From Accumulibacter sp. (GTDB taxonomy: Bacteria; Pseudomonadota; Gammaproteobacteria; Burkholderiales; Rhodocyclaceae), in the NCBI GenBank assembly GCA_017302455.1, contig JAFLDO010000004.1:1-64000 (forward strand): 64,000 bases of DNA, given 5' to 3'. The notes beneath the pieces were generated by a model. It worked only from the letters and a program-made list of their open reading frames with translations. It searched no databases and was not told the DNA's origin. Position numbers and translations under genes: made by a program. Below are positions 2-56,713 of the stretch, piece by piece (within the stretch, counting starts at the first letter, position 1; each line of letters begins with the position of its first letter).

Positions 2-868
2 GTCGAGGGCGAGTTCCCGGCCAGCGGCACGGCGTCCAAGGACTTCCTCAAGCGCGTGCGGGCGCGGCGGGCGATCATCGAGGCATCGGCGACCAGCGCG
101 GCCGGCGTCGAGACGGCTGCCTTCACGGCCAGCCACGCTGCGCTCGCGCAGGCGCAGCGCGCCTTCGACACGGCGCTGCAGGCGGTGAGTGCGCGCTTTC
201 AGGCGGGGTCGGCGCTGGCCGCCGACGTGGCGACGCTCGAGCGCCTGGCGGCATTGCCGGTGGCGGTGCCTCCGACCAGCTTCCCGGTCCTGACGCCCTG
301 GCAGCATGCCCGCCTGCACGACGCGAGCCGCAAGTCGGCGCGCGAAGCCGCTCTCGCCAAACTCAAGGCCGTCGATGACGCACAACTGGCGCTGCGCAGC
401 GCGCAGGCCAGCTACGACCAGGCGCTGCACGCGGCCATGCAAGCCGAGCCCGACGCGACGCCGGCCCAGCTCGACGCGACGACGCTGAGCGTGCAGCGCG
501 CAGCGCTCGACGGCAAGGCGGCCGATCTCGAAGCGGCGCGCACGGCAGTCGACGCCGGCGAGAGGGCAAGCCTGCAGGCCTGGTTCGCCGCCGTTCCAGA
601 CGCGCTCTGGGAAGCGCTGGAAAGCCTCGACAGCGCTCTGGCGCGGCTGACGCTGTTGTCCGGGCCGCCGGCAGCGGCCACGCTGCTGGCCGACCGGGAT
701 GCTGCCGAGGCCGCCCTGGTGAGTGCGCTCAGCGCGGCACGGCTGACGCAGCGCAAGGCGGCCGGGGCCGGCGCGGCGCACCTGCGGGCCAGTGCCGCGC
801 AGTTGGCCGAAAGCGAAACGCAGCGGCAGCGTGCCGATGCGGTCGCCCGCAGCGCGTCCTTGTTCTGA
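2..868 (+). CDS. Alanine-rich helical protein, 5' end cut by the window
   Basis: The frame is open from base 2 with no in-frame stop, and the codons before the GTG at 56 read as ordinary coding sequence, so the true start is probably outside the window. The visible 288 residues are rich in Ala, Leu, Gln, Arg and Asp, with no signal peptide, membrane segment or Cys. They look like long helices or a coiled coil. The stop lies 14 bases before the next gene, so the two are probably co-transcribed. I do not recognise a family. Position upstream of the DUF4157 protein suggests a structural or accessory role in the same system, which is inference from context only. Confidence 0.7.
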   Translation, partial: VEGEFPASGTASKDFLKRVRARRAIIEASATSAAGVETAAFTASHAALAQAQRAFDTALQAVSARFQAGSALAADVATLERLAALPVAVPPTSFPVLTPWQHARLHDASRKSAREAALAKLKAVDDAQLALRSAQASYDQALHAAMQAEPDATPAQLDATTLSVQRAALDGKAADLEAARTAVDAGERASLQAWFAAVPDALWEALESLDSALARLTLLSGPPAAATLLADRDAAEAALVSALSAARLTQRKAAGAGAAHLRASAAQLAESETQRQRADAVARSASLF

Positions 869-50562: not shown

Positions 50563-51630
50563 TCAATAGACTTCGGGGATGAAGGTCTGGTCAGACAGAG
50601 GTGGGCGCACGTAGCCGCGCTCGTCCTGACGCGGCGGCAGGACGATTGGTTCGGGTGTCAGGTCCTCATAGTCGATCATGTTCAGCAGGTGCGTGATGAC
50701 ATTGAGGCGAGCCCGCTTCTTGTCGTCGCCATCGACCACATACCAGGGTGCCTGCTTGATGTCGGTGTGCGCAAACATGGCGTCCTTGGCTTTCGAGTAT
50801 TCCACCCAGCGCGCCCGCGACTCGAGGTCCATCGGACTGAGTTTCCAGTGTTTCTCAGGATGGAAGATCCGCTTCTGGAAGCGGCGCTCCTGCTCCTCGT
50901 TGCTGACCGAGAACCAATACTTGATCAGGATGATTCCGCTACGCACGAGCATCCGTTCGAATTCCGGACAGGTACGCAGAAACTCGCGATATTCCTCTTC
51001 CGTACAGAATCCCATGACCCGTTCGACGCCGGCCCGGTTATACCAACTGCGATCGAACAACACCATTTCGCCGCCGGCGGGGAGGTGTTGGACGTAGCGC
51101 TGGAAGTACCACTGGCTCTGCTCCCGATCCGTCGGCGCGGGCAGCGCCGCCACTCGGGTGACCCGCGGGCTGAGGCTCTCGGTAATGCGTTTGATCGTAC
51201 CGCCCTTGCCGGCTGCGTCGCGTCCTTCGAACAGGACCACCACTTTAAGCTTCTTGAACTTGATCCACTCCTGCAGTTTCACCAGTTCGATCTGCAGTTT
51301 CGAGAGAGTCTCTTCGTACAGCTTGGTCTTGAGCGCCGGCTTGCGGACGTGTACGGTCTCGCTCTGGCTGGCCTTGGCCTGGGCTGCGTCTGCCTTCTGC
51401 CCTGCCGGTGCTGCCTTGGCCACCTTGGGATTGGGAGTCTTGGCCTTGGTCGCTTTGGCGGGCGTGCTGCGCTCCCCATTCTTGCCATCGCCTTTCACAG
51501 CGTTCTTGCTTGCCGTCTTGGCGGGGACTTCCTTGACGGGCTCTGCTTCCTGTTGCGCGGTCACGTTCTCGATCTTGGCTGAATCGCCTTCCGGTACGAC
51601 CTCTTCCTGGACAGTCTTGACTTCACTCAT
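50563..51630 (-). CDS. ppk2: Polyphosphate kinase 2
   Basis: 355 residues from the ATG at 51630, after AAGGAGGCATCA. The first 95 residues are Lys/Ala/Pro/Glu-rich low complexity; the core follows. Walker A FEGRDAAGKGG at about 135, DREQSQWYFQRYVQHLP (lid-forming) and Walker B VLFDRSWYNRAGVE at about 190 are the PPK2 signature (PF03976). PPK2 enzymes move phosphate between polyphosphate and nucleotides; a single PPK2 domain of this type usually makes GTP or ADP/GDP-level products, but subclass is not settled. The long charged tail is unusual. Confidence 0.95.
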   Translation of the reverse strand: MSEVKTVQEEVVPEGDSAKIENVTAQQEAEPVKEVPAKTASKNAVKGDGKNGERSTPAKATKAKTPNPKVAKAAPAGQKADAAQAKASQSETVHVRKPALKTKLYEETLSKLQIELVKLQEWIKFKKLKVVVLFEGRDAAGKGGTIKRITESLSPRVTRVAALPAPTDREQSQWYFQRYVQHLPAGGEMVLFDRSWYNRAGVERVMGFCTEEEYREFLRTCPEFERMLVRSGIILIKYWFSVSNEEQERRFQKRIFHPEKHWKLSPMDLESRARWVEYSKAKDAMFAHTDIKQAPWYVVDGDDKKRARLNVITHLLNMIDYEDLTPEPIVLPPRQDERGYVRPPLSDQTFIPEVY

Positions 51631-52285
51631 TGATGCCTCCTTGGTGTGGCTGAAAACGGGTAATAGATAAAACGGCGTCGTGGCAGAGCAGCGTGGCGCA
51701 ACTGGCTGGTGCGGATGTCGTGCGGAGCTGCACGTCACGGTGCCCGGTGGAGGGGTAGGGCGCGACCGCGCCACATCCCGCCACACCGTAAGCTCACGGT
51801 TCAGTGAACGACAGGGACGCGCTGATCGCTGAAAAGGCGCACAGTACCCACGCTGGCACGGTCGGATCGCCGGCACACGCGGACGGGCAATGAACTGTCG
51901 GAGATCCCACCGCCTGGCGAGACGCCAGATTGGGTAGACGGGTGGGCTGTGGGGGACGGGAAACGGTCACGCCGCGTCAGGGTGGCGCGCGCCAAGGGAC
52001 TGCAGGGGGTGGGCAGCCCCTGGTGTCCGGGGGGGCGAGCTTGCGGCCGTACTGTCGATGCGAGCGGCGGCCTCGATAGGTTCCTGAGTCGTTGGCATGG
52101 TTCCATTCCTCTTTGCGCCGGATGGTCCGGGGGCGCCAATTATCGCGCATTTTCTCGCAGGAATGCACAATTCTGCGCACGAAACGTGCAGTCCGGCGGG
52201 TTCTGCCGGCGACCGCCGGTGGTGCCGCGGGCGCCAGACGATTCTGCTGGCGACGCGTCGAACGACAGTAACGGATTGGTGCTTA
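51631..52285. other. 655-base gap left of the mobile element
   Basis: No confident gene. A 43-codon frame on the minus strand (52098-51967, starting MPTTQEPIEAAARID) has a weak ribosome binding site and might be real. An AT-richer patch near 52139-52175 could hold a promoter. No domain seen. Confidence 0.45.
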
Positions 52286-52292
52286 CGCGCGG
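52286..52292. repeat. Left target-site duplication (CGCGCGG)
   Basis: Identical to 56707-56713 and directly outside the matching inverted ends. A 7-bp duplication is within the 4-8 bp range known for IS21-family elements. The sequence is simple and GC-rich, so chance is not excluded. Confidence 0.75.
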
Positions 52293-52341
52293 CCTTGGCG
52301 CTCACCAGAGTTGACCCGCTCCTGCTCACCCGGACTGACCC
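52293..52341 (+). repeat. Left end: two 18-bp transposase-site repeats
   Basis: GCTCACCAGAGTTGACCC at 52300-52317 and GCTCACCCGGACTGACCC at 52324-52341, preceded by CCTTGGC at the tip. Probable IstA binding sites. Confidence 0.85.
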
Positions 52342-52671
52342 ACTGCCCGGGCTTGCCGCGCCGCATGTGAAAGAGAGAAGAGGTCCTGCCACAGGTAGGA
52401 CGGTCTGGGCTGCTGAGATGGCGAGAGACGTGGCCCCGTTGATGCGCAACGGCTCCCGGTGGCGGTCGGTGTTCCTCGTGTGTTATCCGGAGCGATAGCG
52501 CCTCAGTCCGAAGGCGCGTCTTCCTGACGGTGCGGCAGAGAAGCCCCTCGCGGCGCGCGCAGTCCCCAACAAATTCGTCCCGGACCTCATAAGCCCTCCC
52601 ACAGTCAGGAATCACTCCGGCCGCCGTATCTTCCCGCGCGACATCACGACCTCGTGCGGGGAGAACTCACC

Positions 52672-53109
52672 ATGGAATTCCGGCAATGCCAGGCGTGCCA
52701 GGCCCCCTTTCGGCCACGCCCGCAAATTGCAGAGCAACGCTTTTGTTCCGCTGCCGCCTGCCAACGTGAACGGCGACGGCGTTGGCAGGCAACCAGGCGC
52801 CAGAACGATCCGGACTATCGCGAGAACCAGAAGCGGGTGCAACAGGCCTGGGCGGAGCGCCACCCGGACTATTGGCGGAACTATCGACGCCAACACCCGG
52901 AGTACGCCGAGCGCAACCGCGCCCAGCAGCGGCAACGCGCGCAGGACAAGGCGGCCGGGCAGATTGCAAAGATGAACGCGTCAAAGGTTGAAATGCCCCT
53001 TCCTTCAGGTACTTACCGTTTATCCCCGGTGGTGGACGCGTCGCTTGCAAAGAGTGACGCGTGGATGGTCGAAATCACTTTGATTACAGCAGCTTGCGCT
53101 TCACCGTGA
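52672..53109 (+). CDS. Cys-rich small protein of the IS21-like element
   Basis: 145 residues from the ATG at 52672, after GGGGAGA. CQACQAPF and, 13 residues on, RFCSAAACQRERRRRWQ give a C-x2-C ... C-x4-C pattern that could bind zinc, followed by a long Arg/Gln/Tyr-rich helical part with repeated HPDYWRN / HPEYAERN. Very basic, so DNA or RNA binding is likely. The last 40 residues read differently and may be a read-through tail. First gene of the element, 83 bases before the ParB-like gene. An accessory or targeting role is inference. Confidence 0.7.
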   Translation: MEFRQCQACQAPFRPRPQIAEQRFCSAAACQRERRRRWQATRRQNDPDYRENQKRVQQAWAERHPDYWRNYRRQHPEYAERNRAQQRQRAQDKAAGQIAKMNASKVEMPLPSGTYRLSPVVDASLAKSDAWMVEITLITAACASP

Positions 53110-53192
53110 AGGCCTGCTGAGATTGCAAAAGAAGACTCTCTCGCCTTGCCGCCGCCTGGCCGGTACGCTAGGTCCGACAGGAGGTATCTCGC

Positions 53193-54191
53193 ATGGATAA
53201 GTTGGCTGCTGCGGGGGTTCTGAGCCTCGACTTGCACCGCCTCGATTTGCGCTATGCATCGCTTCGCTTGCCGGACCCTCCGGCGATCACGCGTCTGGCC
53301 AGGTCAATCGCGGCCGATGGTCAATTGGTTCCCTGCATTGCGGTCGCCGGGGAGGGCGAGGCGTTCATCCTGGTCGACGGCTATCGACGCATCGCCGCGT
53401 TGCGTCACCTCGGGCGCGATACGGCCGAGGTCGAATGCTGGCAGGCGGATCTCGCGCAGGCGCTGTTGGGCGTGTTGGCGCGGACGCGCAGCCGATCGTT
53501 TGCGCCGATCGAAGAAGCCTTCCTGTTGCGCGAGTTGATTTCGGGCGGGCAGTTGAGTCAACACGAAGTCGCCCGGCGTTGCGGGCGCGATGTGAGCTGG
53601 GTCAGTCGCCGTCTGCAACTGCTCGGGGGGCTGTCGGACGCCTTGCTCGAGGCCGTACGCCAGGGGCAGGTGTCGACCTGGGCGGCGGTCCGCATCCTCG
53701 GACCGTTGGCGCGCGCCAATAGCGCGCACGCCGAACAACTGCTCGCGACCCTGCGCACGACGCCCCTGTCAACTCGGCAATTGGCCAACTGGTTTGCGCA
53801 GTATCAACGCGCTGCGCGACCGGTGCGCGAGCGCATGGTCGAGTCGCCGCAGCTGTTGCTCGAAGCCGTCGCCGCTCGGCAGGAAGAGAAGGTTGCCGAA
53901 CGTCTGCGCGAGGGGCCGGAAGGCGAGGTGCTCGCCGACCTGCGCATCCTGGAAGCCGTCGGTGCCCGTCTGAAGCGGCGTTTGTCCGCCTTGAGTTCGC
54001 CATCGACCGCTATGCCGCCCGCCGTCACGGCGGCGGTGGCTTCTTTGCAACCGGCGCTCGCGTCGCTTCAGCGCCATCTGACCAGGATTTGCCCGCATGA
54101 TATCCCCCGAGATTCGTCAATCCGTCCAGACGCTGCATCAGCAAGGCCTGGCTGTTCGCGAGATCAGCCGGCTCTTGAAGCTGTCGCGTAA
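53193..54191 (+). CDS. ParB/RepB-like protein of the IS21-like element
   Basis: 332 residues; CAGGAGG precedes the ATG. Residues about 15-95 are a ParB N-terminal domain (ITRLARSIAADGQLVPCIAV, then FILVDGYRRIAALRHLG, the box that in ParB binds CTP). Residues about 110-180 are a KorB/ParB-type helix-turn-helix (LSQHEVARRCGRDVSWVSRRLQLL). No ParA is near. The last 32 residues overlap the istA start by 95 bases in another frame. ParB proteins bind DNA sites and spread; here a role in target choice, regulation or maintenance of the element is possible but not shown. Confidence 0.85.
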   Translation: MDKLAAAGVLSLDLHRLDLRYASLRLPDPPAITRLARSIAADGQLVPCIAVAGEGEAFILVDGYRRIAALRHLGRDTAEVECWQADLAQALLGVLARTRSRSFAPIEEAFLLRELISGGQLSQHEVARRCGRDVSWVSRRLQLLGGLSDALLEAVRQGQVSTWAAVRILGPLARANSAHAEQLLATLRTTPLSTRQLANWFAQYQRAARPVRERMVESPQLLLEAVAARQEEKVAERLREGPEGEVLADLRILEAVGARLKRRLSALSSPSTAMPPAVTAAVASLQPALASLQRHLTRICPHDIPRDSSIRPDAASARPGCSRDQPALEAVA

Positions 54192-55488
54192 TACGATTCG
54201 CCGCATCCTGCGAATGCCGGTTCTTGCCGACGCGCGCGAGCCCGCGTGCCCGGCGCCGGTACGCCTCTGGCTCCCTGCCGCTTTTGCGCGCGTGCGCGGC
54301 TATGGGGTCCGCCTACAGGAGATGCTGCAGGCGGAACTGGGCCTCCATCCCGGCTACAGCACGCTCACCCGATGGATCCGGGAAGCCGGTCTGCGCTCGC
54401 CGCCCAAACGCGCTGGCGAGTATGTCTTCGCGCCCGGCCAGGAGATGCAGCACGATACCTCGCCCCATCGCGTGATCCTGGCCGGCAAGACGCTGACGGC
54501 GCAATGCGCGTCGCTGATCCTGGCCTATTCGCGCTGCCTGTTCCTCCAGTACTACCCGCGCTTTACGCGCTTTGAAGCCAAGCAGTTCCTGCTCGAGGCC
54601 GTGCGCTTCCTGGCCGGCTGCTGCCCGACCTGCGTCATCGACAACACCAGCGTGATCGTCGTCGACGGCGCCGGCGACGATGCCGTGTTCGCGCCCGAGA
54701 TGGTGGCGTTCGCGCGCACGCTGGGATTCGCCTTCCGTGCCCACCCGGTGAACCAACCCGACCGCAAGGGGCGCGTCGAAAGACCTTTTGCCTGGGTCGA
54801 AGGCAATTTCCTGGCCGGGCGGACGTTCGCCGATTTCGCCGACCTGAACCAGCAGGCGCGAGCCTGGTGCGAGAAGGTGGCGAATGCCAAGCCGAAGCGT
54901 GTCCTGGGGATGGCGCCAAGCGCGGCCTACGCGATGGAGAGGTCCTGTCTGCAGCCGCTGCCGGCGGTGTTGCCGCCGGTCTATCAGGTGGCCGAGCGGG
55001 TGGTCGATCTGTACGGCTTCGTGTCGATCGAGACCAATCGCTACTCGGTGCCCGAACGTTGGGTGGGCAAGACGCTGACGGTTTATCTGTACGCCAGCGA
55101 ACTCAGGATCTGTGCCCGCGAGCAACTGGTCGCGGTCCACCCGCGGCTGATCGGCGTACGCGATGCCAAGCAGAAGCTGCCCGGGCATCACCCGACGCCG
55201 CAGCGTCAGGATCGTACCCCGCCGCCTGAAGCCACCTTGCTGCAGGGCCACCACCCTGTGCTCGACGCGTACGTCGCGGCGCTCGTCAAGCAGGCGCACG
55301 GGCGCGGGGTGCGGCCCCTACGCCGCTTGCTGGGGTTCCGGCGAAGCTACCCGGAAAGTCCCTTCCTCGCGGCGGTCGCGCAGGCGCTGAAGTTTGGTCT
55401 CTTCGACCTCGGCCGCCTGGAGGCGATGATCCTGCAGCAGGTGGCCGGGGACTTCTTCCGCCTCGACCGCGGAGACGACGATGCGTGA
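54097..55488 (+). CDS. istA: IS21-family transposase IstA
   Basis: 463 residues. N-terminal helix-turn-helix (VREISRLLKLSRNTIRRIL) at about 20-45, then a DDE catalytic core: Asp in MQHDTSPH (about 120), Asp in CVIDNTSV (about 182) and Glu in RKGRVERPFAW (about 228). A beta-barrel-like part follows (YGFVSIETNRYSVPERWVG). It cuts and joins the element ends. It starts inside the parB-like gene and ends in an 8-base overlap with istB, so translation is coupled. Confidence 0.93.
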   Translation: MISPEIRQSVQTLHQQGLAVREISRLLKLSRNTIRRILRMPVLADAREPACPAPVRLWLPAAFARVRGYGVRLQEMLQAELGLHPGYSTLTRWIREAGLRSPPKRAGEYVFAPGQEMQHDTSPHRVILAGKTLTAQCASLILAYSRCLFLQYYPRFTRFEAKQFLLEAVRFLAGCCPTCVIDNTSVIVVDGAGDDAVFAPEMVAFARTLGFAFRAHPVNQPDRKGRVERPFAWVEGNFLAGRTFADFADLNQQARAWCEKVANAKPKRVLGMAPSAAYAMERSCLQPLPAVLPPVYQVAERVVDLYGFVSIETNRYSVPERWVGKTLTVYLYASELRICAREQLVAVHPRLIGVRDAKQKLPGHHPTPQRQDRTPPPEATLLQGHHPVLDAYVAALVKQAHGRGVRPLRRLLGFRRSYPESPFLAAVAQALKFGLFDLGRLEAMILQQVAGDFFRLDRGDDDA

Positions 55489-56296
55489 GCCGCTCAAGGC
55501 GCTGATTGCGCAGATGCGCTGGTCCGGAATGGAGCGCGTCCTCGACGAGGAACTCGACCTCGCCGAACGGCAGGGGACGCCGGTCCCCGAGGTGCTCTTT
55601 CGCCTGCTTCGCGCCGAAGAAGCGGCGCGGCGCGAGAAGAGCCTGGCCTATCGTCTGGCCCAGGCCCATCTACCCTGGCCGTGGACCTTGCAGTCGTTCC
55701 CCTTCGCCCGTCAGCCGAGCGTGAACAAGGCGCAGGTCCTGACCCTCGCGGGGCTCGACTTTCTGCGCCGCGGCGAGAACCTCCTGCTGATCGGCCCGCC
55801 CGGCACCGGCAAGTCGGGAATCGCCATCGGGCTCCTGCGCGAAGCGTGTCTGAATGGCTACCGCGCCCGTTTCTATAACGCACAGGCCTTGCTCGACGAA
55901 CTGTATGCTTCGCTCGCTGACCGCTCGACGATTGGGCTTCTCAATCAGTTGTGCCGCCTGCCGTTGATCGTCATCGACGAACTCGGCTACCTCAACCTAA
56001 AGCCCGAGCAGGTCAACGCGTTCTTCCGCCTGATGGACCAGCGCTACAATCTGCGTCTGTCGACGATTGTCACAACGAATGTCGACCTGCCCGATTGGTA
56101 CGAGTTGTTTCAGAAGAAACCGCTGGTCGATGCGCTGCTCGACCGCCTGCAGCATCGCTGCACCCTCCTGCGCTTGAGTGGTGCGAGTTTGCGCAGCGAG
56201 CCGGCTGGCTCCCAGGCAACCCAAACGACGGCCCCGACAGCTGCCTCCACCCGCGCGACGTCTCGCAGGAAGACCTCGCCAGACGACTCCGCGTAG
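55481..56296 (+). CDS. istB: IS21-family helper ATPase IstB
   Basis: 271 residues. Walker A LLIGPPGTGKSG is at about 105 and Walker B LIVIDELGYL at about 165, with STIVTTNVDLPDW (sensor region) after it: an AAA+ ATPase of the IstB/DnaC-like group. IstB oligomerises on target DNA and recruits IstA. The C-terminal 40 residues are Ser/Thr/Ala-rich and divergent. The ATG overlaps the istA stop. Confidence 0.94.
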   Translation: MREPLKALIAQMRWSGMERVLDEELDLAERQGTPVPEVLFRLLRAEEAARREKSLAYRLAQAHLPWPWTLQSFPFARQPSVNKAQVLTLAGLDFLRRGENLLLIGPPGTGKSGIAIGLLREACLNGYRARFYNAQALLDELYASLADRSTIGLLNQLCRLPLIVIDELGYLNLKPEQVNAFFRLMDQRYNLRLSTIVTTNVDLPDWYELFQKKPLVDALLDRLQHRCTLLRLSGASLRSEPAGSQATQTTAPTAASTRATSRRKTSPDDSA

Positions 56297-56657
56297 CGCT
56301 TGAAGCCACCGGTGAACGGCGGTCGCTTGCTCGCCCAGCATCACCGTTGCTCCTCGATGACCGCCGCGTGGGTCGGACGCCTCAAACGCCGGTCTGCATG
56401 GCAGTAAGCGCGATACTGCCGCCCTTACTGCCACGCCCCAGCGTATCGCCCCTCCGCTGCGTCAAGGGACGCTGCGCCAGGCTGCGAAAAGCCGCAGCCT
56501 GCCCTTGACCCAGCTCCGGGGCGCCTCTCCCTCACCCCCCAAGGCTTCCGCCAGCCACGAAGAAAAAACCCTCCGCACGGCTTGGCGAAGGCCACTTCTT
56601 CAACAGCTTCAACCCTTGCACGCAGCCGCGCTTACCACCTAGGCCTGCGCTACCGCT
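56297..56657. other. 361-base non-coding tail of the element
   Basis: No gene is seen between istB and the right end. A run of A after GCCACGAAG near 56559 and the pyrimidine-rich stretch before it do not form a clear terminator. Confidence 0.5.
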
Positions 56658-56706
56658 GGCTCAATTCTCGTGAGCAAAAAAGGGTCAGGTTTCGTGAGCG
56701 TCAAGG
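56658..56706 (-). repeat. Right end: two 18-bp transposase-site repeats
   Basis: Read on the minus strand: GCTCACGAAACCTGACCC (56699-56682) and GCTCACGAGAATTGAGCC (56675-56658), with tip CCTTGAC to 56706. The 24-base spacing equals that of the left end. Confidence 0.85.
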
Positions 56707-56713
56707 CGCGCGG
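56707..56713. repeat. Right target-site duplication (CGCGCGG)
   Basis: Perfect copy of 52286-52292, directly after the right end. Confidence 0.75.

What the first reader, a model, noticed from the sequence alone, without database searches (positions are those of the whole stretch)
52293..56706. IS21-like transposon that carries its own ParB-like and Cys-rich genes
IS21-family elements normally hold only istA and istB. Here two more genes precede them on the same strand inside the element ends: a Cys-rich basic protein and a ParB-like protein with a helix-turn-helix. Known transposons with accessory DNA-binding proteins use them for target choice, regulation or immunity, so this may be a distinct targeting or control system built on IstA/IstB.
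Basis: partly seen in the sequence, partly recalled or inferred. Interest (0 to 1): 0.85.

Follow-up and report, generated by a model that had tools for sequence, protein, structure and literature searches.

The report
Shared control cassette of unrelated transposons
The extra genes in this bacterial jumping element belong to an apparently unnamed portable control unit, a zinc-finger-like protein with its own set of three matching DNA sites in front of a promoter-like sequence, that also sits in mobile elements moved by completely different enzymes.

Summary
Window 52293-56706 is an IS21-family element with paired end repeats, a 7-8 bp target duplication and four genes in the order cys-parB-istA-istB; relatives are multicopy in related genomes. 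The interpretation needs changing: ParB is not the core. The constant part is the Cys-rich gene plus three DNA boxes (TTGCAAAGATGGACGC type) in its 3' end and just behind it. The same unit heads IS21 elements of two clades, serine-recombinase gene blocks and triple-tyrosine-recombinase elements; divergent Cys proteins have other triple boxes. Box class follows the Cys protein's tree (4 changes, the minimum) while the engine label needs 14. The boxes are conserved as DNA (silent sites, non-coding copies), helically phased (~60/70/80 bp), and in 37 of 52 loci the third stands 30-32 bp before a -10-like hexamer. Best explanation: the Cys protein is a transcription factor, probably an activator, of the recombinase genes, and factor plus boxes travel as one unit. 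Targeting is not supported: box-1 matches (up to one mismatch) in three host genomes all lie inside elements, and six target duplications show no shared motif. Binding and activity are untested.

The parts
52293..56706 (+). whole mobile element, IS21 family, 4414 bp
   Evidence: homology to copies at other sites starts/stops here; ends and duplications
52286..52292 (.). left copy of target-site duplication CGCGCGG
56707..56713 (.). right copy of target-site duplication CGCGCGG
52293..52341 (+). left terminal repeat, two units GCTCAC..TGACCC
   Evidence: similar layout in distant relative L285
56658..56706 (-). right terminal repeat (inverted), two units
52672..53109 (+). Cys-rich (C-x2-C-x15-C-x4-C) basic protein, 145 aa; proposed box-binding transcription factor
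   Evidence: only protein found in all arrangements
52964..52979 (+). box 1 TTGCAAAGATGAACGC (inside the Cys gene)
53045..53060 (+). box 2 TTGCAAAGAGTGACGC (inside the Cys gene, 81 bp on)
53123..53138 (+). box 3 TTGCAAAAGAAGACTC (after the Cys stop codon, 78 bp on; degenerate here)
53164..53169 (+). -10-like hexamer TACGCT, 31 bp after the GGAC position of box 3
53193..54191 (+). ParB-like protein (ParB/Noc N-domain + HTH), 332 aa
54097..55488 (+). IstA, DDE transposase
55481..56296 (+). IstB, AAA+ helper ATPase

Best explanation
The front of the element (Cys gene, three boxes, promoter-like sequence) is a portable control cassette. Shown by comparison: the Cys gene stands first before recombinase genes of three chemistries; it comes with three boxes conserved as DNA and helically phased, the last one mostly 30-32 bp before a -10-like hexamer; box sequence follows the Cys protein and not the recombinase; a 1-kb block of Cys gene, boxes and a small HTH gene is alike between tyrosine-recombinase and IS21 elements whose following genes are unrelated. 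Inferred: the Cys protein is a zinc-dependent DNA-binding protein that reads the boxes; bound on one face of the helix, with box 3 covering about -56 to -34 where no -35 hexamer is conserved, it switches on transcription of the recombinase genes (class-II-like activation). A repressor at the same place is less likely but possible.
For: By DNA alone: a pattern of three TTGCAAA words retrieved stretches with the Cys gene in 34 of 119 genome stretches and 1 of 45 viral ones; in 33 of the 34 and in the viral one the gene overlaps the match, in L177 it lies beside it. By protein: of 22 kept loci found by protein search, 21 have at least three class I boxes and the 22nd (L296) has three copies of its own motif; 15 of the 22 are the window or come, but 7 (L284-L289, L296) come from genomes that already held a motif-found locus. 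In a further protein-found sample 19 of 28 loci have a triple array scoring above 15 block shuffles each. Silent sites: third-codon entropy is lowest, Trp columns apart, at box columns 98, 99, 103, 125, 126, 129, 101, 102, 127, 130 (median of the gene 1.66 bits); column 99 reads GCA in 19 of 21, column 126 in 18 of 19 without gap. All three boxes of a 70/70 array lie behind the stop codon in L286 and L177, and box 2 lies outside the shortened ORF in L280 and L281. Phasing: 55 gaps from 53 loci fall at 59-60, 66, 68-71, 78-80; vector length 0.876 at 10.5 bp, 0.815 for 26 distinct type-gap combinations, 0 of 20,000 uniform draws (56-84 bp) as high; 0.816 for 22 gaps of protein-found loci alone. 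Promoter: TANNNT at +30..32 after box 3 in 37 of 52, box 1 0 of 53, box 2 2 of 53; in 50 non-redundant loci 24 at exactly +31, -10 score 172 against at most 151 in 500 shuffles. A box (up to 3 mismatches) upstream of the Cys gene in 0 of 50 loci. Cognate pair: on a tree of 67 Cys N-terminal regions the five motif classes need 4 changes, the least possible (0 of 200 shuffles as low), the engine label 14. The base before TTGCAAA agrees between box 1 and box 3 in 49 of 53 elements, maximum 41 in 5,000 shuffles. Exchange: L110 (three tyrosine recombinases) and L347 (IS21) align at 73% over Cys gene, boxes and HTH gene and not beyond; L094 with L143 at 67% and L107 at 66% likewise. RNA folding z from -1.58 to +0.32 in six stretches.
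Against: No binding or expression data. The AlphaFold model (mean pLDDT 82, pTM 0.46, C-terminal part poor) has no significant relative in the PDB; the top hit, zinc protein YacG, has E 6.5. Box 3 in the window is degenerate and its -10 (TACGCT) weak; a generic scan found no sigma-70 promoter in the element. 15 of 52 loci lack TANNNT at +30..32. The promoter signal is established for class I only: in class II a TA stands 38 bp after the last box start in 5 of 7 loci, but inside coding DNA, and classes III-V show nothing clear. Boxes and Cys protein could be linked merely because the boxes lie in its gene. In the sample, 9 of 28 homologues show no array above shuffles: L320, L321, L334 (degenerate; L320 and L321 stand near a TrfA-type gene), L322, L329, L330, L335, L337, L338 (several truncated); of the older loci rescored there L290 also fails (one direct box; one copy looks inverted) and L067 only ties. 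The tree rows were cut before class I boxes, but a few box-coded residues of classes III and IV remained, and classes IV and V are one row each. Shuffles do not remove relatedness; motif-found loci were required to have boxes 2 and 3 at 58-88 bp.
Confidence: 0.67

Rival explanations
1. The boxes are an internal transposition or recombination site (an enhancer, like the internal activation sequence of phage Mu, recalled), bound by the Cys protein to assemble or license the recombination complex.
For: Box-1 matches lie only inside elements in three genomes and the array is helically phased.
Against: Three unrelated recombinase chemistries would need the same architectural site; the near-fixed distance of box 3 to a -10-like hexamer is not predicted.
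Confidence: 0.15
2. The boxes are parS-like sites of the ParB-like protein, which spreads from them along the element to regulate it or give immunity.
For: The ParB-like protein has the ParB N-domain and HTH and is encoded next to the boxes in the window.
Against: The same boxes occur with no ParB found in Cys-HTH-IS21 and Cys-HTH/CHC2-tyrosine elements; six serine-recombinase regions without a Cys gene hold at most one TTGCAAAG word, five of them annotated with a ParB/RepB pair. The ENxxR motif of CTP-hydrolysing ParB (recalled) is not conserved and GERR reads G[YF]xR.
Confidence: 0.07
3. The boxes act in RNA, as an attenuator or antiterminator between the first gene and the rest.
For: The direct boxes lie in gene 1 or between gene 1 and gene 2 in the orientation of transcription.
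Against: 10.5-bp phasing, no RNA fold better than shuffles, no Rfam match near its gathering score, a -10-like hexamer downstream.
Confidence: 0.05
4. Targeting: the ParB-like or Cys protein picks the insertion site, as TnsD/TniQ do (recalled).
For: ParB-like is DNA-binding by profile, and both genes belong to the element.
Against: 17 of 17 box-1 matches in three genomes lie inside elements; six target duplications share no motif by eye.
Confidence: 0.03

Closest known systems
IS21 family (IstA/IstB)
   Same: IstA and IstB profiles above cut-off, paired terminal repeats at both ends, 6-8 bp duplications
   Different: the family is described as two ORFs between the ends (PMC10122671, passages seen); here two more genes and a box array precede them
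RIT elements (recombinase in trio)
   Same: three adjacent tyrosine recombinases (L110), with TTATGTTGCGAGT-type repeats inverted at the two ends of L110, L286 and L177
   Different: RITs are described as about 3.5 kb, with no convincing repeats besides an inverted repeat and palindrome flanking ritA and ritC (PMC3414803, passages seen); here a Cys gene, boxes and an HTH or CHC2 gene precede the trio inside the ends
GInt islands (ginABCD)
   Same: three integrases with a small fourth gene
   Different: the fourth gene is last in the operon and is likened to TnpC (PMC5385486, passages seen); no Cys gene or array is mentioned in the passages seen
Serine recombinase-ParB-RepB triad on plasmids
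   Same: same three engine genes as the type-B blocks
   Different: six regions with a related recombinase (L305-L310) have no Cys-profile match and no array; 133 plasmid records matched and most were not looked at
Lambdoid immunity regions (recalled)
   Same: a regulator and its operators exchanged as a unit between elements
   Different: protein family, box layout and promoter position differ; there the exchange is between related phages, here between elements with unrelated recombinases

Membership tests
IS21 family | IstA DDE transposase | tested here: met
   NF033546 160.7 bits, cut-off 160; Mu-transpos_C_2
IS21 family | IstB AAA+ helper | tested here: met
   NF038214 214.7 bits, cut-off 200
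IS21 family | terminal inverted repeats each with two repeat units | tested here: met
IS21 family | short target duplication | tested here: met
   6-8 bp in 6 of 6 copies given, one-base shifts allowed
IS21 family | only two ORFs between the ends | tested here: not met
   four ORFs; so an enlarged IS21 element
ParB/Noc | ParB N-domain plus HTH | tested here: met
   profile of 11 relatives matches Spo0J, ParB and Noc structures, best E 1.3e-18; HTH_ParB above cut-off
ParB/Noc | CTP-hydrolysis motifs GERR and ENxxR (recalled) | tested here: not met
   G[YF]xR present, ENxxR not conserved
ParB/Noc | ParA partner | tested here: not met
   none among the four genes of the element
RIT elements (type C relatives) | three adjacent tyrosine recombinases | tested here: met
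   Phage_integrase in all three genes of L110; homologues in L094, L123, L177, L286, L296
RIT elements (type C relatives) | three genes only, about 3.5 kb | tested here: not met
   Cys gene and HTH or CHC2 gene inside the inverted repeats, 4.5-4.9 kb in L110, L286, L177
Any named protein family for the Cys protein | match above cut-off in Pfam or NCBIfam, or a convincing one in PHROGs or PDB | tested here: not met
   best Pfam 16.2 bits (cut-off 26), NCBIfam 12.3 (cut-off 600), PHROGs E 0.0074, PDB sequences none at E 10, PDB folds best E 6.5
DNA-binding transcription factor | binds its boxes and changes transcription | not testable with these tools
   needs bench work

The most novel reading that the evidence does not exclude
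A new family of small zinc proteins forms, with its cognate triple phased boxes and a box-dependent promoter, a self-contained control and cross-talk cassette that circulates among mobile elements regardless of recombination chemistry (two IS21 clades, a single-ORF DDE-like element, large serine recombinases, tyrosine-recombinase trios, perhaps TrfA replicons). Elements sharing a box class would then switch on, or mutually exclude, one another across families.
Probability: 0.5. Interest if true: 0.9.

Novelty: categorically new. Interest (0 to 1): 0.84.

Why it matters
Transposition control is normally thought of as specific to one recombinase family (general knowledge, no call). A cassette that keeps its protein-box pairing while its engine changes between DDE, serine and tyrosine recombinases would show that control and catalysis evolve as separate modules in mobile elements. 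It offers protein-box pairs of five motif classes, two of them seen in many loci, for studying how a DNA-binding protein and its sites change together, and a marker by which unannotated mobile elements can be found from DNA alone. A cautious reader may call it a new variant of the regulator-operator kind; I rate it higher because I know of no control module shared by three recombinase chemistries, and in the lists of nine searches of the held library (titles and abstract starts seen) nothing was on it. That library lacks most subscription papers.

Tried and rejected
ParB as the central actor: dropped when boxes and Cys gene turned up without ParB. Target choice by the accessory proteins: no box-1 match outside elements in three genomes, no shared target motif. 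Boxes as a by-product of coding repeats: rejected by silent-site conservation and non-coding copies. A first codon count (GCA 36 of 36) was circular because copies were picked by TTGCAAA; replaced by the alignment-based count. RNA element: no fold, no Rfam family. The sigma-70 scan of the window gave no promoter; the -10 signal shows only in the comparison. The ends of the serine-recombinase blocks could not be fixed, so that the Cys gene lies inside those as mobile units is inferred from conserved DNA and order. Ends of the class I A2 elements were not fixed either; for the class II relatives they were, with a duplication seen in one (L291) of three copies.

Loci dropped before the 22 (protein-found) and 54 (all) counts as decayed, truncated, near-copies or low-scoring: L045, L047, L048, L050, other G011 copies, L066, L067, L068, L278, L279, L297, L160, L224, the class II group, and matches G531, G762:C342, G766:C367 (these three not fetched with flanks). 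Of the 119 genome stretches and 45 viral stretches found by the DNA pattern, 85 and 44 had no Cys match, also with the class II/V profile; they were not followed up, and many are AT-rich or tandem repeats by their match lists.
Full report
1. The element. Four + strand genes lie between 52293 and 56706. Homology to a G015 copy starts and stops at these bases; both ends begin CCTTGRCGCTCAC with a second repeat unit 24 bp on, and the six copies given to one search have 6-8 bp duplications if one-base shifts are allowed. Relatives: a left part of a 92% copy, cut by the end of contig C26 of the same genome; by ParB protein 95% in G009, 88% twice in G015, nine places at 72-79% in G011, 75% in G022, 72% in G014. 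G014:C127 is letter for letter NZ_SPMY01000126.1, Candidatus Accumulibacter phosphatis, and G014 is told to be of the window's genus, so that genus is probably Ca. Accumulibacter. IstA and IstB pass the IS21 models.

2. The Cys gene leads away from IS21. A protein search of plasmids with the 145-aa Cys protein hit four records at E 1e-3. In Desulforapulum pHRM2a it heads ParB-IstA-IstB; in Methylibium and Variovorax it heads a serine recombinase, a ParB and a RepB-type gene, and in Paraburkholderia, which has no annotation there, the same by homology. The nine stretches printed showed a word of the type TTGCAAAGATGGACGC twice in the 3' end of the gene, 78-81 bp apart, and a third, looser form at or behind the stop.

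3. A scan by DNA alone. 34 of 119 and 1 of 45 hold the Cys gene. Downstream genes: A1 parB-istA-istB, sometimes with a small HTH gene or a CHC2 gene; A2 HTH gene-istA-istB of a second IS21 clade; B serine recombinase-ParB-RepB; C HTH or CHC2 gene and three tyrosine recombinases. Profile searches matched 11 of 398 genomes of the window's phylum (own genome included; some matches are fragments) and 22 of 297 of the phylum of G764 (G764 and G765 included). The Cys gene lies within the element ends in A1, in the class II IS21 group and in C; for B and class I A2 the ends are not fixed.

4. Boxes are DNA sites. Of 22 protein-found loci kept after dropping decayed and truncated ones, 21 have at least three class I boxes; seven of the 22 come from genomes already known to hold a motif-found locus. 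Third codon positions are least variable at the box columns. In L286 and L177 a 70/70 array lies behind the stop codon; in L280 and L281 box 2 lies outside the shortened ORF. Gaps from box 2 to box 3, free of reading-frame limits, fall at 59-60, 66, 68-71 and 78-80 bp (55 gaps from 53 loci, L286 and L177 giving two each; vector length 0.876 at 10.5 bp; 26 distinct combinations 0.815; 0 of 20,000 uniform draws as high; protein-found loci alone 0.816, 22 gaps). That argues for proteins side by side on one face of the helix. RNA folding is no better than in shuffles.

5. Boxes belong to the Cys protein. Divergent Cys proteins carry other triple arrays of like spacing: class II GCGTTACAAGAT (L282, L283, L294, L323, L327, L336), class III TGATACAAGAC (L326, L328), class IV GTGAGATACAAGCCGAG (L324/L325, one element in two genomes), class V CTTGATATACAAGCCCAGTT (L296, tyrosine trio), and perhaps ACCAACGCGT (L067, no better than shuffles). 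In the sample, 19 of 28 loci have an array above 15 block shuffles and 9 do not. On a tree of 67 Cys N-terminal regions (about 90 residues, cut before class I boxes; few columns, many forks open; a few box-coded residues of classes III and IV remain) the five motif classes need 4 changes (minimum) and the engine label 14. IS21-A2-type engines occur with classes I, II and III and tyrosine trios with I and V. Within elements the base before TTGCAAA agrees between box 1 and box 3 in 49 of 53 (shuffled maximum 41). Relatedness is not removed in these shuffles.

6. Exchange of the front. L110 (tyrosine trio) and L347 (IS21) align at 73% over about 1 kb that ends at the stop of the HTH gene; L094 with L143 (67%) and L107 (66%) the same. 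Serine-recombinase regions without a Cys gene exist: six looked at have no Cys-profile match, and 133 plasmid records match the block, mostly over part of it. So the cassette looks added to engines that also exist without it.

7. A promoter. Measured from the GGAC position of box 3, a TANNNT hexamer stands at +30..32 in 37 of 52 loci, against 0 of 53 for box 1 and 2 of 53 for box 2; TG stands three bases before the TA at +31 in 15 of 50 non-redundant loci. No -35 hexamer is conserved. Box 3 then covers about -56 to -34. No box lies upstream of the Cys gene (0 of 50). In the window: box 3 at 53123, TACGCT at 53164-53169, parB start at 53193. Read together: gene 1 makes a protein that acts on a promoter of genes 2-4. 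Because box 3 takes the place of a -35 element I favour activation; repression is possible. In class II a TA stands 38 bp after the last box start in 5 of 7 loci, inside coding DNA; classes III-V are unclear.

8. ParB-like gene. It is a ParB/Noc relative by profile (E 1.3e-18 to Spo0J) without a conserved ENxxR motif (recalled name). It is engine-side: present in A1 and, as another branch, in B; not found in A2 and C. Its role stays open.

9. Limits. No wet data; the Cys model has no fold match; the window's own box 3 and -10 are among the weaker ones; some homologues lack arrays. What would be most surprising if confirmed is the sharing of one control cassette by three recombinase chemistries.

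Noticed in passing
window 50563-51876 (-): The ORF left of the element reads like a polyphosphate kinase 2 (recalled, no profile run); its longest-form start lies about 420 bp from the element's left end, in a probable polyphosphate-accumulating genus.
   Followed up: no
L035 1464-4776; similar-sized breaks in L039 and L041: Three copies in G011 have istA interrupted by about 3.3 kb; in L035 the insert holds a 720-codon frame that looks like a serine recombinase and an HTH-type gene (by eye).
   Followed up: partly
L290-L294, L282, L283, L343, L344: A separate IS21 group, multicopy in G015 and G011, has a longer Cys-type protein; most members have their own GTTACAAGATG triple array. L290-L292 share ends beginning TGTCG or CTGTCG; one of these three (L291) has a CTCAC duplication.
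   Followed up: partly
L339 and L340: A 1907-bp element with 38-39-bp inverted ends (87% alike), a Cys-type gene, GTGAGATACAAG boxes and one transposase-like ORF (rve matches below Pfam cut-offs); CAGCAAATTTTTTTC flanks both sides in L339. Possibly IS1202-like (recalled).
   Followed up: partly
L345 and L346: Cys-type genes with degenerate boxes stand near a TrfA replication initiator gene (PF07042), so the family may also occur on replicons that are not transposons.
   Followed up: partly
L067 4818-5225: A lone Cys-type gene with ACCAACGCGT three times at its end and behind it (90 and 84 bp apart), followed by a CsrA-like frame (recalled).
   Followed up: no
L305-L309: Serine recombinase-ParB/RepB triads occur on plasmids of several proteobacteria without a Cys gene; whether they are mobile units of their own is unclear.
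   Followed up: partly
window 54097-54191: parB and istA overlap by 95 bp in different frames, also in 12 of 12 other copies.
   Followed up: no
L003 (G000:C34) and L004 (G000:C41): Short stretches 78-86% like parts of the element elsewhere in the window's genome suggest remnants or related elements.
   Followed up: no
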